A DNA stretch of 64,000 bases from Rhodobacter sp. SGA-6-6 (GTDB lineage Bacteria; Pseudomonadota; Alphaproteobacteria; Rhodobacterales; Rhodobacteraceae). The DNA lies in the NCBI RefSeq assembly GCF_011043545.1, contig NZ_JAAKGP010000011.1, positions 1 to 64,000 on the forward strand, in the 5' to 3' direction. The position numbers and the translations under genes were made by a program. A model generated the notes under the pieces. That model made no database searches and was not told the origin of the DNA. It was given only the letters and a program-made list of their open reading frames with translations. Below, piece after piece: positions 4,931 to 63,677 of this stretch. Every line of letters starts with the position of its first letter. The first letter of the stretch is position 1.

Positions 4931-5721
4931 CTGTTCAAGTGTCGGGGGAACCCATCCTCAAGGCGCGCGGCCTGGTGAAGCGCTACGGCAAGGTCACCGC
5001 GCTGAACAACTGCGACTTCGACCTGATGCCGGGCGAGATCCTCGCCGTCATCGGCGACAACGGCGCCGGCAAGTCCAGCCTGATCAAGGCGCTGTCCGGC
5101 GCGGTTCAACCGGACGAGGGCGAGATCATGCTGGAAGGCAGGCCGGTGAAGTTCGCCAGCCCGCTGGACGCGCGGGGGTCGGGCATCGAATGCGTCTACC
5201 AGACGCTGGCGATGTCCCCTGCCCTCTCCATCGCCGACAACATGTTCATGGGCCGCGAGTTGCGCAAACCCGGGATCATGGGCCAGCTGTTCCGCCAGCT
5301 CGACCGCCCGGCGATGGAGAAATTCGCCCGCGAGAAGCTGAACGAGCTGGGGCTGATGACGATCCAGAACATCAACCAGGCGGTGGAGACGCTTTCCGGC
5401 GGCCAGCGCCAGGGGGTGGCGGTGGCCCGGGCGGCGGCCTTCGGCTCGAAGGTGGTGATCCTGGACGAACCGACCGCGGCGCTCGGCGTCAAGGAAAGCC
5501 GCCGGGTGCTGGAGCTGATCCGCGACGTGCGCGCGCGCGGGATTCCGATCATCCTGATCAGCCACAACATGCCGCATGTGTTCGAGGTGGCCGACCGCAT
5601 CCACATCCACCGCCTCGGCAGCCGGCTCTGCGTGATCGACCCGAAGGACCATTCGATGTCCGACGCGGTGGCCTTCATGACCGGCGCCAAGCTGCCGGAA
5701 GGGGTGGAGGAAGCCGCCTGA
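4927..5721 (+). CDS. frcA: Sugar ABC importer ATPase (FrcA type)
   Basis: A 264-residue single ABC domain with Walker A GDNGAGKSS, signature LSGGQRQGVAVARA, Walker B VVILDEPTAALGV and the H-loop ISHNMPHV. FrcA proteins are half the length of RbsA or XylG, which carry two ATPase domains, and this one has the short form. It ends the operon; no frcK kinase follows. Instead the first copy of the ~215-bp structured repeat begins about 20 bases after the stop. Confidence 0.9.
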   Translation: MTVQVSGEPILKARGLVKRYGKVTALNNCDFDLMPGEILAVIGDNGAGKSSLIKALSGAVQPDEGEIMLEGRPVKFASPLDARGSGIECVYQTLAMSPALSIADNMFMGRELRKPGIMGQLFRQLDRPAMEKFAREKLNELGLMTIQNINQAVETLSGGQRQGVAVARAAAFGSKVVILDEPTAALGVKESRRVLELIRDVRARGIPIILISHNMPHVFEVADRIHIHRLGSRLCVIDPKDHSMSDAVAFMTGAKLPEGVEEAA

Positions 5722-5742: not shown

Positions 5743-5955
5743 GCCGGGCGGGATGAGGCGAGGCATTGCCTCGCCCCCGCCCGCCCGCGGCGGTTGCACC
5801 CGGAGGCGGTGGCAGCACATAACCCCGAGAGGCCAGCGCCCGAACCCGGCGGGCGAGAAGCGCCCGCCGAGGGCGGGCGCTGGCCGGGACTTGTGGTCCC
5901 GGCCGGGACAAGGGTAACCGTTGCCCTGCGGCGAAGGCGCGCGCCTTCGCCGAAC
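5743..5955 (+). repeat. Structured ~215-bp dispersed repeat, copy 1
   Basis: The repeat lies between the convergent frcA and amidohydrolase genes. In order it holds stem I (GAGGCGAGGCA-T-TGCCTCGCC), a variable stretch with CCCGGAG, stem II (GGCCAGCGCCCG ... CGGGCGCTGGCC) enclosing GGCGGGCG-AGAAG-CGCCCGCC, a GGTCCCGGCCGGGAC element and stem IV (CGGCGAAGGC-GCGC-GCCTTCGCCG, 5929-5952). The same order recurs at 22028, 50559 and 63464. In this copy the outer pair of stem IV is C-G; in the others it is T-A. Confidence 0.85.
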
Positions 5956-5992: not shown

Positions 5993-7159
5993 TCACCCCA
6001 CCGGCAGCCGCGCCTCGGCCATGCCGGCATACCAGCTGGCGCCGAAGGGGATGGCGCTGTCGTCGAAATCATAGGCCGGATGGTGGACCATGGCGGTGTC
6101 GCCGTTGCCGAGGAAGATATAGGCCCCCGGCCTTTCGTTCAGCATGTAGGAGAAATCCTCCGCCGCCATCAGCGGCGCCACATCCATGTCGACCCGGCCC
6201 GAGACGGCGCGGGCGACCTCGGCCGCGAAGCCGGTGTTCTCGGCGGCGTTGACGGTGACCGGATAGCCGCGGTGATAGTGCAGCTCCGCCCGGGCGCCGA
6301 GCGCCAGCGCGGTGCCCTCCACCACCTCGGCCAGCCGCTTCTCCACCAGGTCCTGCACCTCGGGGTCCAGGGTGCGGACGGTGCCCTTCATCTGCACCAC
6401 CTGCGGCAGCACGTTGTGGGCCGGGCTGTCGGTCTCGACCGTGCAGACCGAGACCACGGCCTGTTTCAGCGGATCGACGTTGCGGCTGGCGATGGTCTGG
6501 ATCGCCACCACGATATGGGCGGCGACCACGGTGGTGTCGATGCAGTCGTGCGGCTTGGCGGCATGGCCGCCCTTGCCGGTGACCACGATCTCGAACTGGT
6601 CGGCGGCGGCCATCATCGCGCCGGGGCGGATGGCGAACTGGCCGACCGGGATGCCGGGCATGTTGTGCATCCCGTAGACTTCATCTATTTTCCAACGGGT
6701 TATCAGGCCATCTTCCACCATCTTCAACCCGCCGCCGCCGCCTTCCTCGGCCGGCTGGAAGATGCAGACCACGGTGCCGTCGAAGTTGCGGGTCTCGGCC
6801 AGGTATTTCGCCGCGCCGAGCAGCATGGCGGTGTGGCCGTCATGGCCGCAGGCGTGCATCCGCCCCGGCGTTTCCGAGGCATAGGGCGCGCCGCTCCGCT
6901 CATGGATCGGCAGCGCGTCCATGTCGGCGCGCAGGCCGATGCTGCGGCCCCGGCTGTCGGTGCGACCCCGGATCACCGCCACCACACCGGTCTTGCCGAT
7001 GCCCTCCACCACCTCGTCGCAGCCGAAGCCGCGGCACAGCTCGGCCACCCGGGCGGCGGTGCGGTGGACCTCGAACAACAGCTCGGGGTGGCGGTGGAAA
7101 TCATGCCGCCAGGCGGTGATCTCGGGCAGGAGTTCGGCGAAACGGTTCTTGACAGGCAT
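5993..7159 (-). CDS. M20D-family amidohydrolase (hippurate hydrolase-like)
   Basis: A 388-residue cytoplasmic metallopeptidase-fold enzyme. Motifs of the M20 peptidase/aminoacylase family are present: RHDFHRHPEL, LRADMDALPI, HACGHDGHTAMLLGAA (metal ligands and catalytic base), FQPAEEGGGGG and the late MAAEDFSYML. Such enzymes cleave N-acyl amino acids, hippurate or similar amides. The ATG at 7159 has GGAG about eight bases before it and gives the family N-terminus; a 16-residue longer reading is unlikely. The next gene upstream encodes an amino-acid-type FAD oxidase on the same strand, so the pair may act on an acylated amino compound, but the substrate is unknown. Confidence 0.85.
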   Translation of the reverse strand: MPVKNRFAELLPEITAWRHDFHRHPELLFEVHRTAARVAELCRGFGCDEVVEGIGKTGVVAVIRGRTDSRGRSIGLRADMDALPIHERSGAPYASETPGRMHACGHDGHTAMLLGAAKYLAETRNFDGTVVCIFQPAEEGGGGGLKMVEDGLITRWKIDEVYGMHNMPGIPVGQFAIRPGAMMAAADQFEIVVTGKGGHAAKPHDCIDTTVVAAHIVVAIQTIASRNVDPLKQAVVSVCTVETDSPAHNVLPQVVQMKGTVRTLDPEVQDLVEKRLAEVVEGTALALGARAELHYHRGYPVTVNAAENTGFAAEVARAVSGRVDMDVAPLMAAEDFSYMLNERPGAYIFLGNGDTAMVHHPAYDFDDSAIPFGASWYAGMAEARLPVG

Positions 7160-14864: not shown

Positions 14865-15701
14865 ATGACCAAACTACCCGACCCCGCCTCAGACGGCGCC
14901 CAGATGTCCTTCGACGGGCGGATGTCCTATGGCGACTATCTCGCCATCGACCAGATCCTGACCGCACAGAAGCCGCTCAGCACCGCGCATGACGAGATGC
15001 TGTTCATCATCCAGCACCAGACCTCCGAGCTGTGGATGCGGCTGGCGCTGCACGAACTGGACGCCGCCCGCCGTTGCGTGGCCGAGGACCGCGCCCGCGA
15101 GGCCTTCAAGATGCTGGCGCGGATCGCCCGCATCTTCGAGCAGTTGAACAACGCTTGGGACGTGCTGCGGACGATGACGCCCGCCGACTACACCACCTTC
15201 CGCGAAAGCCTGGGCCAGTCCTCCGGCTTCCAGTCCTGGCAATACCGGCTGATCGAATATGCCGTGGGCAACCGCAACCTTGCGATGCTGAAGCCCCATG
15301 CCCACCGGCCCGACCTGCTGGCGAAGCTGGAGGCGGAACTGGCGCGGCCCTCGCTTTACGACGAGGCGCTGCGGCTCTTGTCCCGGACGGGCTTTGCGGT
15401 GCCGGAGGCGGTGCTGACCCGCGACCTGCGCCAGCCCTGGGCCTTCGACGAGCGCGTGCAGGAGGTCTGGGCGCAGGTCTACCGCAATCCCTCGGCGCAT
15501 TGGGAAGCCTATGAACTGGCTGAGAAGCTGGTGGATTTCGAGGACTACTTCCGCCGCTGGCGCTTCAACCACGTCACCACGGTGGAACGGGTGATCGGCT
15601 TCAAGCGCGGGACGGGGGGCACCTCGGGCATCGCCTATCTCAAGCGGATGCTGGAGGTGCAGCTGTTCCCCGAACTCTGGTCGCTGCGGACGGCGCTGTA
15701 G
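14865..15701 (+). CDS. kynA: Tryptophan 2,3-dioxygenase
   Basis: A 278-residue heme dioxygenase that opens the indole ring of tryptophan to N-formylkynurenine. It has the family core [20 protein letters not shown] with distal His51, the [12 protein letters not shown] helix, the [13 protein letters not shown] segment holding the likely proximal heme ligand His236, and the closing [13 protein letters not shown] loop. Length matches the bacterial family. An AGGAGAAAG ribosome site precedes the ATG. It probably shares the kynU transcript and is followed by a decayed copy of the structured repeat. Confidence 0.94.
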
Positions 15702-16032
15702 GCACTCTCCAGCCGGGCGGGAGAAGAGGCACCGCCTCGCCCCCGCCCGCGCCCAGCGGTTCGACCGGAGACCTGTCAACCCGAGACCGGGAAGACCGGC
15801 GCCGCCCCGGCGGGCCCGGCTGGTCTATGGAAATGATGCTTTGGGACGAAAGCGGTGGCCGTCGCCAGGACAAGAGCGCGGACAGACCTTTCCCGTTCAC
15901 GAAGCCGTCATCGGCGGGCGGTCCGCCGCCCGCCGGCCCCGCGGCGGTTTGACGCTCCTTCCGGCCTCGGCTAGTGTCGCCCCCGTGAATCCGGGAGCAT
16001 TGTTCCCGGAATGGAAACCTGTGAGCCCAAGC
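15702..16032 (+). other. Gap with a decayed structured-repeat copy and a promoter
   Basis: 331 bases without a gene. From about 15714 it carries a degraded relative of the ~215-bp repeat: GCCGGGCGGGAGAAGAGGCA, then GCCTCGCCCCCGCCCG, then CCGGAGAC and CCCGAGA, after which similarity fades, with a possible stem IV remnant near 15858. The right end holds the transpeptidase promoter and an inverted repeat (TCCGGGA-7-TCCCGGA, 15990-16010). Confidence 0.6.
15949..15977 (+). promoter_or_regulatory. Sigma-70-type promoter of the transpeptidase gene
   Basis: TTGACG, a 17-base spacer and TAGTGT, placed about 55 bases upstream of the chosen ATG. The inverted repeat TCCGGGA / TCCCGGA would lie at the start of the transcript. 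Confidence 0.55.
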
Positions 16033-20729: not shown

Positions 20730-21941
20730 TTACGCCCCCGCCGCGACCACCTTCGCCGCCGCCTCCAGCGCGCCGGCCCCGTGCGGCAGGTCCAGCGCCT
20801 TCAGCCCGGCGTCCATCACCGCCAGCGCCCCCAGCGTCATATGGGCGTTGACATGGCCCATATGCGCCACCCGCAGCGCGCCGTCGCTGGCCGGGTCCTC
20901 CGGCGTCGCCATGCCGAGACCGATGCCCAGGGTGACGCCCGCCCTGTGCTCGCACCATTCCCGCAACCGGGTTGCCTGCGGCGCTCCGAAGCGCGCCGCG
21001 GTGACCGAGCGGCCGCGCCAGTCGGGATCGGCGACGTTCATGGCGATCTGCGGGTTGCCCCGGCCCCAGGCGTCGAAGGCGGCCCAGACCGCACCGGCCA
21101 GCACCTCGTGGCGATGCCAGACGGCCTCCAGCCCCTCCTCGTGCACCAGCATGGTCAGCGCCTCGCGCAGCCCGTAAAGGTGCGCGGTCGGCGCGGTGCC
21201 GTCCCAGAGGTGCCAGAATTCGTCCGAGGCGCCGGGGATGCGCGGCCCCCACCGCCAGTAGGGGCTGGCGAGGTCGCCCTCGCCGCAGCGCTGCCGCGCG
21301 GCTTCGGTGAACCAGACGAAGGCCAGGCCCGGCGGGGTCATCAATCCCTTCTGGCAGGCCGCCACGGTGACATCGACGCCCCATTGGTCCATGCGGAATT
21401 CGTCGCAGCCCAGCGAGGCAATGCAGTCCACCGCGAACAGCGCCGGATGACCCGCGGCGTCGATGGCGCGGCGCAGGGCGGGGATGTCGTTGCGGATGGT
21501 GGTGGCGGTGTCGACATGGGTGGTCAGCACGGCCTTGATCCGGCCCTCGCGGTCGGCCCGCAGCGCCGCCTCCACCTGCCCCGGATCGGCCGGGGCCTGC
21601 CGGCCGAAGTCGAGGACATCGACCTCCACCCCCAGTTGTCTTGCGTGGTTGGCCCAGCCATGGCCGAACTGCCCGGTCGCCAGCACCAGCGCCTTCTCGC
21701 CGCGCGAGAACAGGTTGGCCGTCGCCGCCTCCCACCCCGCATGGCCGTTGCCGATCCAGGCCGCGACATGGCCCGAAGTCCCGGCCAGCGTCCGCAGATC
21801 GGGCCAGAGGCTTTCCACCAGGTCGAGCAGCCCGCCCTCGTAGATGTTCGGGCTGCCCCGGTGCATCGCCCGCTGCACCCGGTCGGGAATGACCGAGGGG
21901 CCGGGGATGGCAAGATAGGGCTGGCCGTTGGCAAGGGTCAT
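20730..21941 (-). CDS. Class V PLP-dependent aminotransferase
   Basis: A 403-residue fold-type I enzyme of the alanine-glyoxylate/serine-glyoxylate aminotransferase group. It starts IPGPSVIPDRVQRAMHRGSPNIYEG, has ALFAVDCIASLGCDEF (PLP-binding Asp) and AACQKGLMTPPGLAFV with the Schiff-base Lys. The ATG at 21941 has GAGGAG seven bases upstream. These enzymes move amino groups from alanine, serine or similar donors to glyoxylate. Neighbours do not indicate a pathway. Confidence 0.87.
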   Translation of the reverse strand: MTLANGQPYLAIPGPSVIPDRVQRAMHRGSPNIYEGGLLDLVESLWPDLRTLAGTSGHVAAWIGNGHAGWEAATANLFSRGEKALVLATGQFGHGWANHARQLGVEVDVLDFGRQAPADPGQVEAALRADREGRIKAVLTTHVDTATTIRNDIPALRRAIDAAGHPALFAVDCIASLGCDEFRMDQWGVDVTVAACQKGLMTPPGLAFVWFTEAARQRCGEGDLASPYWRWGPRIPGASDEFWHLWDGTAPTAHLYGLREALTMLVHEEGLEAVWHRHEVLAGAVWAAFDAWGRGNPQIAMNVADPDWRGRSVTAARFGAPQATRLREWCEHRAGVTLGIGLGMATPEDPASDGALRVAHMGHVNAHMTLGALAVMDAGLKALDLPHGAGALEAAAKVVAAGA

Positions 21942-22384
21942 CGCGGGCTCCTCTCCGTTCGCCGGACATGGCTAGGCCGGATCGGGGCGCGGTGCAACCG
22001 GGGGGATTGGACGGGTTGCACGGCTTGACCGGGCGGGAGAAGGCGAGGCACTGCCTCGCCCCCGCCCGTGCGCGACGGCAGCACCCCGGAGACGGTGCGG
22101 CACGAGACCCCGAGAGGCCAGCGCCCGACCCGGCGGGCGAGAAGCGCCCGCCGAGGGCGGGGCGGGCGCTGGCCGGGCCTTTGGGGACCGGCCGGACAAG
22201 GTAAAGCGTTGCGCTGTGGCGAAGGCGATGGCCTTCGCCAAGGCAAGGAACGGAGCGGCGGGGTGAACCCCGCCCTACCACGGGTTCACCCCGGCGGGCG
22301 CCTTGCGCCGGGACGACGGTCGGGGACTCCTTGAGACCCGCGCCCCGATCCGCTACACCCGTGCCACCCCAGCGGAGGCCCGAC
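21942..22384. other. Divergent gap holding structured-repeat copy 2
   Basis: 443 bases between the divergent aminotransferase and ABC exporter genes. About half is the ~215-bp structured repeat (22028-22243). This is the only good copy outside a convergent gap. Promoters for both flanking genes must lie here but no clear -35/-10 pair was found. Confidence 0.6.
22028..22243 (+). repeat. Structured ~215-bp dispersed repeat, copy 2
   Basis: Same order as copy 1: stem I GAGGCACTGCCTC core, CCCGGAGACGG, then CCCGAGAGGCCAGCGCCCG leading into the large nested stem II, the GGGCCTTTGGGGACC element and stem IV TGGCGAAGGC-GATG-GCCTTCGCCA (22217-22240). The outer stem IV pair is T-A here against C-G in copy 1. 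Confidence 0.85.
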
Positions 22385-24133
<1,749 letters not shown>

Positions 24134-49821: not shown

Positions 49822-50351
49822 TGCATTTCGCCCCGCGGATGATGCAGGTGGTGCAGGGCGAATTCCGCGTCTCCGCCGATCCGGGCGAGGAATTGTCCAC
49901 GATCCTCGGCTCCTGCATCGCCGCCTGCATCTGGGATCCGGGCCGCGGTATCGGCGGCATGAACCATTTCCTGCTGGCGCAGTCGCTGGGCAATTCCTCC
50001 GCGCCGGACAACCGCTACGGCGTCCATGCGATGGAGGTGCTGATCAACGGCCTTCTGCGCGCCGGGGCGCGGCGCGAGGCGTTGCAGGCCAAGCTGTTCG
50101 GCGGCGCGAAGATCGCCGCCAACCTGCGCGACATCGGCGCCTCCAATGCCGATTTCGCCCGCGGCTTCCTGCGGACGGAGGGGATCGCCTGCCGCGCCGA
50201 AAGCCTGGGCGGCACCCGGGCGCGGCGGGTCAGCTTCCACCCCGCCACGGGACGGGCACGGCAATTGCTGATCCCGAACGACCAGCTGGACGAGACCCCG
50301 CTGCGCAGCCCGCCGAGGCCGGCGGCGGGGACCAGCATCGAGCTGTTCTGA
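49821..50351 (+). CDS. cheD: Receptor glutamine deamidase CheD
   Basis: A 176-residue enzyme with the Thr-Cys-His active site of CheD: T27 and C32 in STILGSCIAACIWD and H49 in GGMNHFLLA. It deamidates receptor glutamines; in Bacillus it also binds CheC, but no cheC is seen here. It is the last gene of the operon, translationally coupled to cheB. Confidence 0.93.
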   Translation: MHFAPRMMQVVQGEFRVSADPGEELSTILGSCIAACIWDPGRGIGGMNHFLLAQSLGNSSAPDNRYGVHAMEVLINGLLRAGARREALQAKLFGGAKIAANLRDIGASNADFARGFLRTEGIACRAESLGGTRARRVSFHPATGRARQLLIPNDQLDETPLRSPPRPAAGTSIELF

Positions 50352-50806
50352 AAGGCGCGATGCCGGCAGGCGGAGGAAAGCGCCGCAGCGGGTCCGGCCG
50401 GCAGAGCGTCCATCCGCGGACTGCCGGACTTGCAGAACGCTCCGCAGGAGGCTCCTTCGCCGCGCCAAGGAAAGGCGTCCTCGGCTGCAAGAAAACTCCG
50501 CATCGCGCAGCCGGCAAGGGGCCGGGCCGGCATCCGGCGCCGGAAGGGCCGCGGCAGGGCCGGGCGGGATGAGGCGAGGCACTGCCTCGCCCCCCGCCCC
50601 TGCGGGACATGTCACCCGGAGACGGCAGTGGCACAAGACCCCGAGAGGCCAGCGCCCGACCGGGCGGGCGAGAAGCGCCCGCCGAGGGCGGGCGGGCGCT
50701 GGCCGGGCCTTTGGGGCCCGGCCGGGACAAGGGGAAGCGTTGTGCTGTGGCGAAGGCACACGCCTTCGCCAAGGGGATCGTCCAGGCAAAGCGGCAGCCC
50801 GTTCCC
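50352..50806. other. Convergent gap with structured-repeat copy 3
   Basis: 455 bases between cheD and the convergent serine hydrolase gene. The left 200 bases are GC-rich with loose internal repetition (GCCGGCATCCGGCGCCGG near 50530 also occurs in the 18.7-19.1 kb gap). The right half is the ~215-bp structured repeat. No gene was found. Confidence 0.6.
50559..50774 (+). repeat. Structured ~215-bp dispersed repeat, copy 3
   Basis: GCCGGGCGGGATGAGGCGAG opens the copy as in copy 1; CCCGGAGACGG, CCCGAGAGGCCAGCGCCCG, the nested GGCGGGCGAGAAGCGCCCGCC core, GGGCCTTTGGGGCCC and stem IV TGGCGAAGGC-ACAC-GCCTTCGCCA (50748-50771) follow in order. It ends 33 bases before the serine hydrolase stop codon. 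Confidence 0.85.
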
Positions 50807-51967
50807 TTACCCCAGATGCCGGAACAGCGCCTCGAACAAGGCGATGTTGCGCTGGTCGATGTCGTCGTCCACCGGCTCGGCCTGCGAGGAGAGCTTGACG
50901 ACGACCACCTCGCTGGCGGGGTCCACCGCCAGCCATTGGCCGTGGATGCCGATGGCGCAGAACCAGTCGCCGCCGGAGCGATACCACTGGTTGCGATAGG
51001 CCCCGCCCGGCAGCAGCTCGGGGAAGTCGCCGCGGGCCCATTGGCCGCGGTCGCCGCCCTCCACCGTGTCGCGGACCCAAGGCCCGGGCACCACCCGGCC
51101 GCCGGGGCCGATGCCGCCCTGCCGCATCATCTCGCCCACCCGGGCGAGGTCGCGCGCCGTCATCGACACCCCGCCGGCGGCGCGTCCCAGCCCCACGGCA
51201 TCGACGGTCAGCGCCACGGGCCCGCGGCAGCCGATCCGGGTCCAGACCCTTTCCTGGAACAGGTCGGCCAGCCGCGCACCGCCCGCGCGCTCCACCATCG
51301 CGCCCAGCATGTCGGAATTGGGCGAGCGGTAACGGAAGGCGTCGCCATAACCCCCGGGCAGCGGCGGGATGGTGCAGAGGAATTCGAGCAGCGTCAGGCC
51401 GTCCGTCCCCGGGTTCCACAGCATCGCCCGGCGGTAGCGGGCGAAGGGGCTGTCCGGGGTCAGATAGGCCTCGTCGAAATCCAGCCTTGTGGTCATGTCG
51501 AGAAGGTGCCGCAGGCTGGCCTCGCCGAAGGCGGAGCCCGCGGCCTCGGGCACGAAGCGGGTCACCGGGTCCCCGGGCGAGAGCCTGCCCTCGGCCTCCA
51601 GCGCCCCCGCCAGCAGCGCGGTCAGGGACTTGGAGATCGAGAACACCAGATGCGGCAGCGCCGGGTCGGCATGGGGCGCGGCCCAGTCGGCCAGCACCCG
51701 GCCGGATTTCATCACGCAGAAGAGGTCGGTGTCATGCGCGGCCAGATGCTCCGCCACCGTCGTCCCGCCCGCGCCGAGCGGCGCCTGCAACAGGGCGGGG
51801 TCCTCGGCCGGCGCCTCCGGGCGCGGATCGGCGGGAAGGCGGATCGCGCTCGGCACCAGTTCGGCAACGTTCTGGAAGGCCCAGCGGCTGAAGGGCGCCG
51901 TGCGCCAGTTCGCCAGCGTCACCTCTGCGCGCCGGAACCCGTAGCGCGCCGCGAAATCCGTTGCCAT
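50807..51967 (-). CDS. Serine hydrolase, class C beta-lactamase family
   Basis: A 386-residue protein with the S-x-x-K nucleophile motif in FSISKSLTALLAG and the Y-x-S/N motif in RYRSPNSDMLG, the core of the beta-lactamase/esterase (EstB-like) family. There is no signal peptide, so a cytoplasmic esterase or amidase is more likely than antibiotic resistance. The ATG at 51967 is preceded by GGGAGG. Its role next to the glp locus is unclear. Confidence 0.82.
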   Translation of the reverse strand: MATDFAARYGFRRAEVTLANWRTAPFSRWAFQNVAELVPSAIRLPADPRPEAPAEDPALLQAPLGAGGTTVAEHLAAHDTDLFCVMKSGRVLADWAAPHADPALPHLVFSISKSLTALLAGALEAEGRLSPGDPVTRFVPEAAGSAFGEASLRHLLDMTTRLDFDEAYLTPDSPFARYRRAMLWNPGTDGLTLLEFLCTIPPLPGGYGDAFRYRSPNSDMLGAMVERAGGARLADLFQERVWTRIGCRGPVALTVDAVGLGRAAGGVSMTARDLARVGEMMRQGGIGPGGRVVPGPWVRDTVEGGDRGQWARGDFPELLPGGAYRNQWYRSGGDWFCAIGIHGQWLAVDPASEVVVVKLSSQAEPVDDDIDQRNIALFEALFRHLG

Positions 51968-63463: not shown

Positions 63464-63677
63464 GGCGGGCGGGAGAAGGCGAGGCACTGCCTCGCCCCCG
63501 CCCGTGCGGATGGGTTCACCCGGAGGCGGCGGTCACAAAAAACCCGAGAGGCCAGCGCCCGACCCGGCGGGCGAGAAGCGCCCGCCGAGGGCGGGGCGGG
63601 CGCTGGCCGGACCTTTGAGGCCCGGCCGGGATGGTTGATATGGTGCGCGGTGGCGAAGGCAATGGCCTTCGCCAAGG
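63464..63677 (+). repeat. Structured ~215-bp dispersed repeat, copy 4
   Basis: Starts at the base after the alcohol dehydrogenase stop codon: GGCGGGCGGGAGAAGGCGAG, CCCGGAGGCGG, CCCGAGAGGCCAGCGCCCG, the nested core, GGACCTTTGAGGCCC and stem IV TGGCGAAGGC-AATG-GCCTTCGCCA (63651-63674). It ends 16 bases before the convergent DUF1345 stop codon. Confidence 0.85.

What the first reader, a model, noticed from the sequence alone, without database searches (positions are those of the whole stretch)
5743..5955. A ~215-bp multi-stem repeat in four good copies within 64 kb
Copies at 5743-5955, 22028-22243, 50559-50774 and 63464-63677 share the same order of elements: a GAGGCGAGGCA/TGCCTCGCC stem, CCCGGAG, CCCGAGAGGCCAGCGCCCG leading into a large nested stem around GGCGGGCG-AGAAG-CGCCCGCC, a CCTTTGGGGCC-like element, and a GGCGAAGGC/GCCTTCGCC stem. 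The segment after stem I varies while stems are conserved, all four copies have the same orientation on this strand, and no protein is encoded. It could be a structured non-coding RNA, a non-autonomous mobile element or a chromosome-organising repeat. I do not recognise it as a named family.
Basis: seen in the sequence. Interest (0 to 1): 0.8.

Follow-up and report, generated by a model that had tools for sequence, protein, structure and literature searches.

The report
Folded repeat scattered after gene ends
A 210-base DNA repeat that folds into a chain of hairpins is scattered about 200 times through one bacterial genome, almost always just behind the end of a gene and mostly pointing against DNA replication; it belongs to a family found in related bacteria that we could not match to any named repeat.

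Summary
In detail: four full copies, all +, none overlapping a called gene, plus a decayed fifth at 15715-15866. The repeat is much larger than the window shows: 206 core matches in the 4.29-Mb genome (backwards control 3) and 174 full copies in the 1.63 Mb examined. The ~210-bp unit shows no target duplication. None of 173 classified copies overlaps a called gene; 159 border a gene 3' end (nearest stop: median 30 bp). The + strand opposes the local G-rich strand in 137 of 173 (47 of 62 between convergent genes). An ~82-nt core recurs across the host's family (named hits: Rhodobacterales); there, 93 of 99 classified copies border a 3' end. Stems covary across genera, and core G-T wobbles outnumber A-C mismatches 37 to 2, suggesting that this strand's fold is selected. 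No Rfam match; no Y1 (PF01797) or TnpB zinc-ribbon (PF07282) hit in this genome. Best reading: a non-autonomous, fold-dependent mobile repeat of REP/MITE kind, mobiliser unknown, orientation linked to replication. Main rival: a host-serving 3'-end RNA element. Mobility and transcription are untested.

The parts
5746..5951 (+). full copy 1, between convergent genes (stop of + gene at 5721; stop of - gene at 5993)
   Evidence: CM R1 hit 1-210; gene calls
22031..22239 (+). full copy 2, between divergently transcribed genes (aminotransferase-like - gene starting at 21941; MsbA-like ABC transporter gene starting at 22460)
   Evidence: CM R1 hit; gene calls; families, matches below the curated cut-offs of the named models
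50562..50770 (+). full copy 3, between convergent genes (CheD-like gene ending at 50351, about 211 bp away; - gene ending at 50807, about 37 bp away)
   Evidence: CM R1 hit; gene calls; families, below cut-off
63467..63673 (+). full copy 4, 3-4 bp after the stop of an iron-alcohol-dehydrogenase-like gene and about 20 bp before the stop of a convergent gene
   Evidence: CM R1 hit; gene calls; families, below cut-off
15715..15866 (+). decayed fifth copy (stem I recognisable, core damaged), about 13 bp after the stop of a + gene at 15701
   Evidence: CM R1 44.1 bits, E 3.9e-10; nhmmer E 7.6e-6 over model positions 2-108; sequence
22031..22067 (+). stem I of copy 2: outer GGGCGGG/CCCGCCC with inner GGCGAGGC/GCCTCGCC
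   Evidence: MFE fold; covarying helices 1 and 2 across relatives
22116..22174 (+). core of copy 2: outer stem GGCCAGCGCCCG/CGGGCGCTGGCC around inner hairpin GGCGGGCG-AGAAG-CGCCCGCC (22132-22152); the family-wide part
   Evidence: 21-mer position, the rest counted by hand on the sequence; conservation and covariation
22218..22239 (+). 3'-terminal hairpin of copy 2, GGCGAAGGC/GCCTTCGCC
   Evidence: fold; covarying helix 8

Best explanation
It is a non-autonomous interspersed repeat of the REP/MITE kind, about 210 bp long, from a family seen here only in Rhodobacterales, and amplified to about 200 copies in this genome. Shown: a common unit at unrelated loci, intergenic position just behind stop codons, a conserved fold, and orientation that follows the local GC skew (taken as replication direction) more than gene direction. 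Inferred: the folded + strand (as RNA or single-stranded DNA) is the substrate of an unknown trans-acting enzyme that copies the unit into new sites without target duplication. The enzyme may act on single-stranded DNA exposed at forks and transcribed gene ends, which would set the polarity. Insertions survive where no promoter or coding frame is broken, mostly within 60 bp of a stop codon. There the hairpins may also affect the 3' ends of neighbouring mRNAs as a side effect.
For: About 203 core matches here net of the control, against 3 full-length and 1 core-only place in the best congener G011, one each in G010 and G006, one weak match each in G004 and G009, and no model match in the other 7. 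In the four closest pairs displayed (95-97% identical) similarity stops at CGGGCGGGA and CTTCGCCA and the flanks are unrelated. No target-site duplication over 174 copies. A homologous intergenic region holds a copy in G011 and none here. 0 of 173 overlap genes: 62 convergent, 65 opposite, 32 same, 14 divergent; 141 of the 159 beside a 3' end lie within 60 bp of a stop. In named relatives 93 border a 3' end, 2 are divergent, 4 overlap a gene call. Across relatives 96.1% of cells pair (shuffles 77.4%, slid <=46%) and 43 of 53 pairs show both-side changes. On an alignment not fitted to the model 97.9% pair (shuffles 92.0%, slid <=46.5%), 8 of 22 pairs with both-side changes. Core G-T 37 against A-C 2. 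The + strand opposes the G-rich strand in 137 of 173 with copies masked, p 4.5e-15; convergent subset 47 of 62.
Against: No mobilising enzyme was found: no PF01797 and no PF07282 match in this genome, and the one RVT_1 match is DRT2-like, a defence protein; other transposase classes were not searched. No clean empty site of exactly the unit was recovered; one search compares diverged intergenic regions. No two compared copies are identical (nearest-neighbour identity median 91%, best 96.7%), so no recent jump is seen. Weak sequence preference reaches about 13 bp beyond both ends, so the ends are less sharp than the pairs suggest. Carrier gaps are longer than other gaps of >=40 bp even with the unit removed for codirectional (166 against 106 bp) and divergent pairs (294 against 174), not for convergent ones (80 against 86). 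The wobble bias is confined to the core stems: the other stems of own copies show 17 G-T against 15 A-C once one misplaced column pair is left out, and both strands fold equally well by z-score. Strong conservation in old copies could equally mean host function.
Confidence: 0.5

Rival explanations
1. A host-serving structured RNA element: it is transcribed as 3'UTR, intercistronic or antisense RNA and blocks exonucleases or read-through, and is kept by selection; copy number rose by duplication and gene conversion.
For: Compensatory changes across genera; wobble bias in the core; position close behind stops in own genome, four relatives and named relatives, as reported for a significant proportion of E. 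coli REPs (PMC12306157, passages read).
Against: Not oriented with the neighbour gene: 65 opposite against 32 same, 35 against 31 in named relatives. About 200 copies in one species and 0-4 places in 12 congeners. No terminator-like site at copy 1, the only copy scanned.
Confidence: 0.27
2. The orientation bias comes from loss, not entry: copies insert both ways, but the orientation that puts the better-folding strand on the lagging-strand template is deleted during replication.
For: The + strand is mostly the one opposed to the G-rich (presumed lagging-template) strand, the direction this predicts; the + strand of copy 2 folds slightly better than its complement, -139.8 against -135.0 kcal/mol. 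The replication-strand reasoning is recalled, not tested.
Against: The energy difference is small and the z-scores are equal; only 9 of 183 nhmmer matches were not full length, so few deletion remnants are seen.
Confidence: 0.2
3. A polar chromosome-organising site (a nucleoid or segregation signal) read by a DNA-binding protein.
For: Regional polarity, a copy about every 21 kb on average, GC-rich palindromic core.
Against: 36 of 173 copies point the other way; no listed copy in the last 234 kb of contig C1 or the first 139 kb of C44; few or no matches in 12 congeners, which must organise their chromosomes too.
Confidence: 0.08
4. A classic REP family moved by a RAYT (IS200/IS605-like) transposase.
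For: Extragenic, palindromic, high copy, near stop codons, no target duplication.
Against: PF01797 absent from this genome and from 13 of 14 carriers searched, this one included; unit about 210 bp rather than 20-40 bp; no GTAG or CGTC tag at its ends.
Confidence: 0.05
5. Similarity limited to GC-rich words (artefact).
For: High GC of the examined DNA (0.70).
Against: Backwards-pattern control 3 against 206; E-values to 4.8e-55; covariation with slid controls.
Confidence: 0.005

Closest known systems
REP / BIME elements with RAYT transposases (PMC2817692, PMC3733652; passages read)
   Same: High-copy extragenic palindromic repeats, often close to gene 3' ends
   Different: Those are 20-40 bp with a GTAG or CGTC tag and an associated Y1 transposase; this unit is ~210 bp with several stems, no tag at its ends, no Y1 match in the genome, single dispersed copies with skew-related orientation
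MITEs (recalled definition; review PMC10969869 seen only in a search listing)
   Same: Short, non-coding, multi-copy, intergenic
   Different: No target-site duplication and no covariation of the outer flanks; the outermost parts are two different hairpins
attC sites and other structured-DNA motifs (e.g. OTH-22-1, PMC8632094, passages read)
   Same: A folded DNA strand can be the substrate of recombination
   Different: No RYYYAAC/GTTRRRY core recognised by eye; no formal attC test was made
Standalone HEARO / omega-RNA-like elements (recalled)
   Same: ~200-nt structured non-coding units in many copies
   Different: No Rfam match of any family in the window; no TnpB-type zinc-ribbon match in the genome; IscB itself was not searched

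Membership tests
REP/RAYT | 20-40 bp palindrome with a conserved GTAG or CGTC head | tested here: not met
   Unit ~210 bp starting CGGGCGGGA and ending CTTCGCCA, base frequencies at both ends over 174 copies and the pairs
REP/RAYT | Y1 (IS200/IS605-like) transposase in the genome | tested here: not met
   PF01797: 0 in own genome; found in 1 of 14 carrier genomes, own included
REP/RAYT | extragenic, near stop codons | tested here: met
   0 of 173 in called genes, 159 of 173 beside a 3' end
REP/BIME | clusters of alternating orientation | tested here: not met
   Copies within 10 kb of each other share orientation in 78 of 98 pairs
MITE | target-site duplication | tested here: not met
   No direct-repeat signal beyond multiple-testing noise (best z 3.8 of 1600 offset pairs)
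MITE | terminal inverted repeats of a related full transposon | tested here: inconclusive
   Outer flanks show no covariation; no systematic search for a parent transposon with these ends was made
MITE | short, non-coding, multi-copy, dispersed | tested here: met
Rfam family | score above a curated gathering threshold | tested here: not met
   0 matches in the whole window; only weak sub-threshold matches around copy 1
TnpB/omega-RNA type element | TnpB/Cas12f-type protein in the genome | tested here: not met
   PF07282: 0 matches at E <= 0.001
attC | RYYYAAC / GTTRRRY core sites | not tested
   Only looked for by eye

The most novel reading that the evidence does not exclude
A new kind of bacterial mobile repeat: a ~210-nt multi-hairpin unit whose folded strand, as RNA or single-stranded DNA, is copied into gene 3' ends by an enzyme outside the Y1 and TnpB classes, with orientation fixed by the replication fork, and which has spread and re-amplified independently across Rhodobacterales.
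Probability: 0.2. Interest if true: 0.8.

Novelty: new variant of a known kind. Interest (0 to 1): 0.6.

Why it matters
It adds an apparently undescribed structured repeat family of Rhodobacterales that also occurs in the model organism Rhodobacter capsulatus. It combines selection on a fold, placement behind stop codons and skew-linked orientation. If mobile, it needs an enzyme that is not one of the two classes searched; if host-serving, it is a 3'-end RNA device repeated about 200 times in one genome. Both readings can be tested in R. capsulatus.

Tried and rejected
Rejected or dead ends. (1) Early guess that the host is an Acetobacteraceae: wrong; the hits named to genus are Rhodobacterales (orders looked up for four of them, and given for Leisingera, the rest recalled), and two contig lengths of carrier G179 equal those of Meinhardsimonia xiamenensis records. 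The species of the window's genome was not identified. (2) RAYT/Y1 and TnpB mobilisers: no match in this genome. (3) Reverse transcriptase as mobiliser: the single RVT_1 match is DRT2-like beside an SSB gene, with no copy in that 3.6-kb locus. (4) Outer closing stem: the flanks looked weakly complementary but showed no covariation. (5) Model helix 3 (long-range closing helix) is the weakest (82.8% paired); I do not rely on it. In the unfitted alignment the inner hairpin shows no both-side change, so its covariation rests. (6) Phage records: no match; two IMG/VR contigs match the core pattern, not followed. (7) Plasmid records: one match, Leisingera. (8) Terminator-like or sigma-70-like site at copy 1: none. 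(9) Fork direction was inferred from GC skew only; oriC and ter were not located. In relatives the orientation signal is weak: 27 of 42 opposed, my hand tally with ~8-kb skews. (10) Fetched pieces were mostly chosen around copies, so the fractions of gene pairs carrying a copy are inflated.

Counts dropped or partial: 1 of 174 copies at a piece edge; one search took 44 of the 98 places (4 of 8 genomes), 1 at an edge; one search used 118 of the 120 named loci (>=3000 bases), set aside 19 places near locus ends and counted 4 overlaps apart; several of these loci come from the same species. Of the 7 congeners without a model match, G008 has a 33-bp BLAST match to the core.

Full report
What was checked. 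A fifth, decayed copy lies at about 15715-15866, also +. Rfam gives no match in the window at gathering thresholds and only weak sub-threshold matches around copy 1.

Genome census. The 21-bp core with up to 3 mismatches occurs 114 + 92 times in the 4.29-Mb genome, against 3 for the pattern read backwards; 169 of 173 full copies satisfy that pattern, so the total is about 200-210. In 1.63 Mb (window plus fetched stretches) nhmmer found 183 matches, 174 of them full length; fragments are few. Median pairwise identity is 85%, median nearest-neighbour identity 91%, and the best pair 96.7%. Most stem columns are nearly invariant while the linkers between stem I and the core and before the last hairpin vary. 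In the four closest pairs displayed, similarity runs from CGGGCGGGA to CTTCGCCA and stops there; over all 174 copies a weak base preference reaches about 13 bp further on both sides.

Position. Genes were called with a codon-usage model trained on the same DNA (1593 genes, coding density 0.87). None of 173 copies overlaps a called gene: 62 lie between convergent genes, 65 with codirectional genes running opposite to the copy, 32 with codirectional genes running the same way, and 14 between divergent genes. A 3' end is thus adjacent in 159 of 173; the nearest stop codon is a median 30 bp away, and within 60 bp in 141 of the 159. In 43 copies of four relatives the counts in the same order are 15, 12, 14 and 1, plus 1 overlap. 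In named loci the counts are 27, 35, 31 and 2, plus 4 overlaps, and the nearest stop is a median 34 bp from the core. The preference for 3' ends therefore holds in relatives too and does not depend on the sense of the gene. Gaps that carry a copy are longer than other gaps of at least 40 bp even with the unit removed, for codirectional (166 against 106 bp) and divergent pairs (294 against 174), but not for convergent ones (80 against 86).

Orientation. Copies run in regional blocks, for example 21 + and 0 - on contig C1 in the 150-copy list. With copies masked and GC skew taken over +/-75 kb, the + strand of the copy is opposed to the G-rich strand in 137 of 173 (p 4.5e-15); the range is 120-138 for skew windows of +/-10 to +/-300 kb. 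The clean subset, between convergent genes, gives 47 of 62. Among codirectional genes, copies run against the presumed fork in 52 of 58 at leading-strand genes and in 26 of 39 at lagging-strand genes, so fork and gene direction both matter, fork more. The element itself is slightly G-rich on its + strand (90 G, 72 C), which works against the signal. In four relatives the tally is 27 of 42, weak, with noisy local skews (hand count). Fork direction is inferred from skew and from the excess of genes on the G-rich strand (893 against 700); the origin was not located.

Family. With the full model, 73 of 198 sampled genomes of the family, this one included, have a match at E <= 0.001 (12 candidates scored per genome). 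An 82-position core model finds 3-27 matches in each of 8 carriers. In a sample of 240 genomes of the class only two match at E <= 1e-4, this one and another of its family; a third family member and the remaining 237, of which 218 rows are not shown, do not (19 candidates scored each at most). The titles that name a genus are, as far as looked up or recalled, Rhodobacterales; the rest are order-, family-, class- or phylum-level MAGs. The full-length architecture occurs in Rhodobacter capsulatus and Pseudorhodobacter, and its 3' half at a locus edge in Tabrizicola. In the genus of this genome, G011 has 3 full-length places and 1 core-only place, G010 and G006 one each, G004 and G009 one weak match each, and 7 of the 12 others none by the model.

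Selection on a fold. On 35 matches from relatives (34 distinct, fitted to the model), 96.1% of cells pair, against 77.4% in shuffles and 38-46% when partners are slid; 43 of 53 pairs show changes on both sides. On a separate MAFFT alignment of 31 cores (the structure being its own RNAalifold consensus), 97.9% pair, against 92.0% in shuffles and 41-47% slid, with 8 of 22 pairs changed on both sides against 3.1 in shuffles, all 8 in the outer stem. In that alignment G-T wobbles number 37 and A-C mismatches 2; over the model-fitted alignment without helix 3 they number 72 and 13. In own copies the two core stems show 28 against 3, but the other stems show no bias, 17 against 15 once a misplaced column pair (143 A-C cells) is left out. 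Wobbles on one strand read as A-C on the other, so in the core the strand as written is the one whose fold seems to be kept. As whole molecules both strands of copy 2 fold equally well against shuffles (z -6.23 and -6.24). Both RNA and single-stranded DNA would fit.

Mechanism. No target-site duplication and no covariation of outer flanks were found over 174 copies. A homologous intergenic region of G011 carries a copy where this genome has unrelated sequence. The genome has no Y1 transposase match and no TnpB-type zinc-ribbon match; its one reverse-transcriptase match is DRT2-like. Y1 is found in only 1 of 14 carriers. Other transposase classes were not searched. I therefore favour a non-autonomous repeat whose folded strand is the substrate of an unknown enzyme, with survival restricted mostly to gene 3' ends, and I mark the enzyme, the RNA-or-DNA intermediate and the cause of polarity as inferred. 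Host function in mRNA 3'-end control is the main rival and may coexist.

Known or new. Papers were searched for repeats and structured RNAs (the first two under the mistaken host guess) and for five literal core strings (none). The library holds only CC-licensed PMC papers. Passages of four papers were read: REP studies PMC3733652, PMC12306157 and PMC2817692, and the structured-RNA survey PMC8632094, which reports other Rhodobacterales motifs (HRC-8-4 between cco operons, uORFC-8-2 before cysS) that differ in context. Its supplements were not read, so an unnamed listing there cannot be excluded.

Noticed in passing
window 22256-22275 and the examined stretches of the same genome: A second, shorter palindromic repeat, GGGCGGGGTTCACCCCGCC, in several flanks preceded by GTA like GTAG-type REPs: 83 matches with <=2 mismatches in the 1.63 Mb examined (reversed control 0), both strands counted, 80 intergenic, sometimes beside a copy of the main repeat. 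No Y1 transposase match in the genome.
   Followed up: partly
L365:1174-2469 (genome contig C13): A 431-aa reverse transcriptase matching DRT2 defence models (E 3.3e-129) beside an SSB gene.
   Followed up: partly
genome contig C1 440-674 kb and C44 0-139 kb: Long stretches with no full copy among those listed or fetched, although the average is one per ~21 kb; possibly acquired DNA, another replicon or a special chromosomal region.
   Followed up: no
genome G015, e.g. C1:2227774-2227906: Most core matches in this relative span ~126-139 bp instead of ~82, as if the core carried an insertion; the core of L189, from another genome, spans 141 bp with an insertion between the arms of the inner hairpin.
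   Followed up: no
L363, L364 (IMG/VR contigs): Two viral-collection contigs carry the core pattern, L363 near its end; could be host DNA or prophage borders.
   Followed up: no
core, window 22132-22174: The inner hairpin's 3' arm (CGCCCGCC) can pair either with GGCGGGCG before it or with the G-rich stretch after it, so two exclusive folds are possible; seen by eye, not tested.
   Followed up: no
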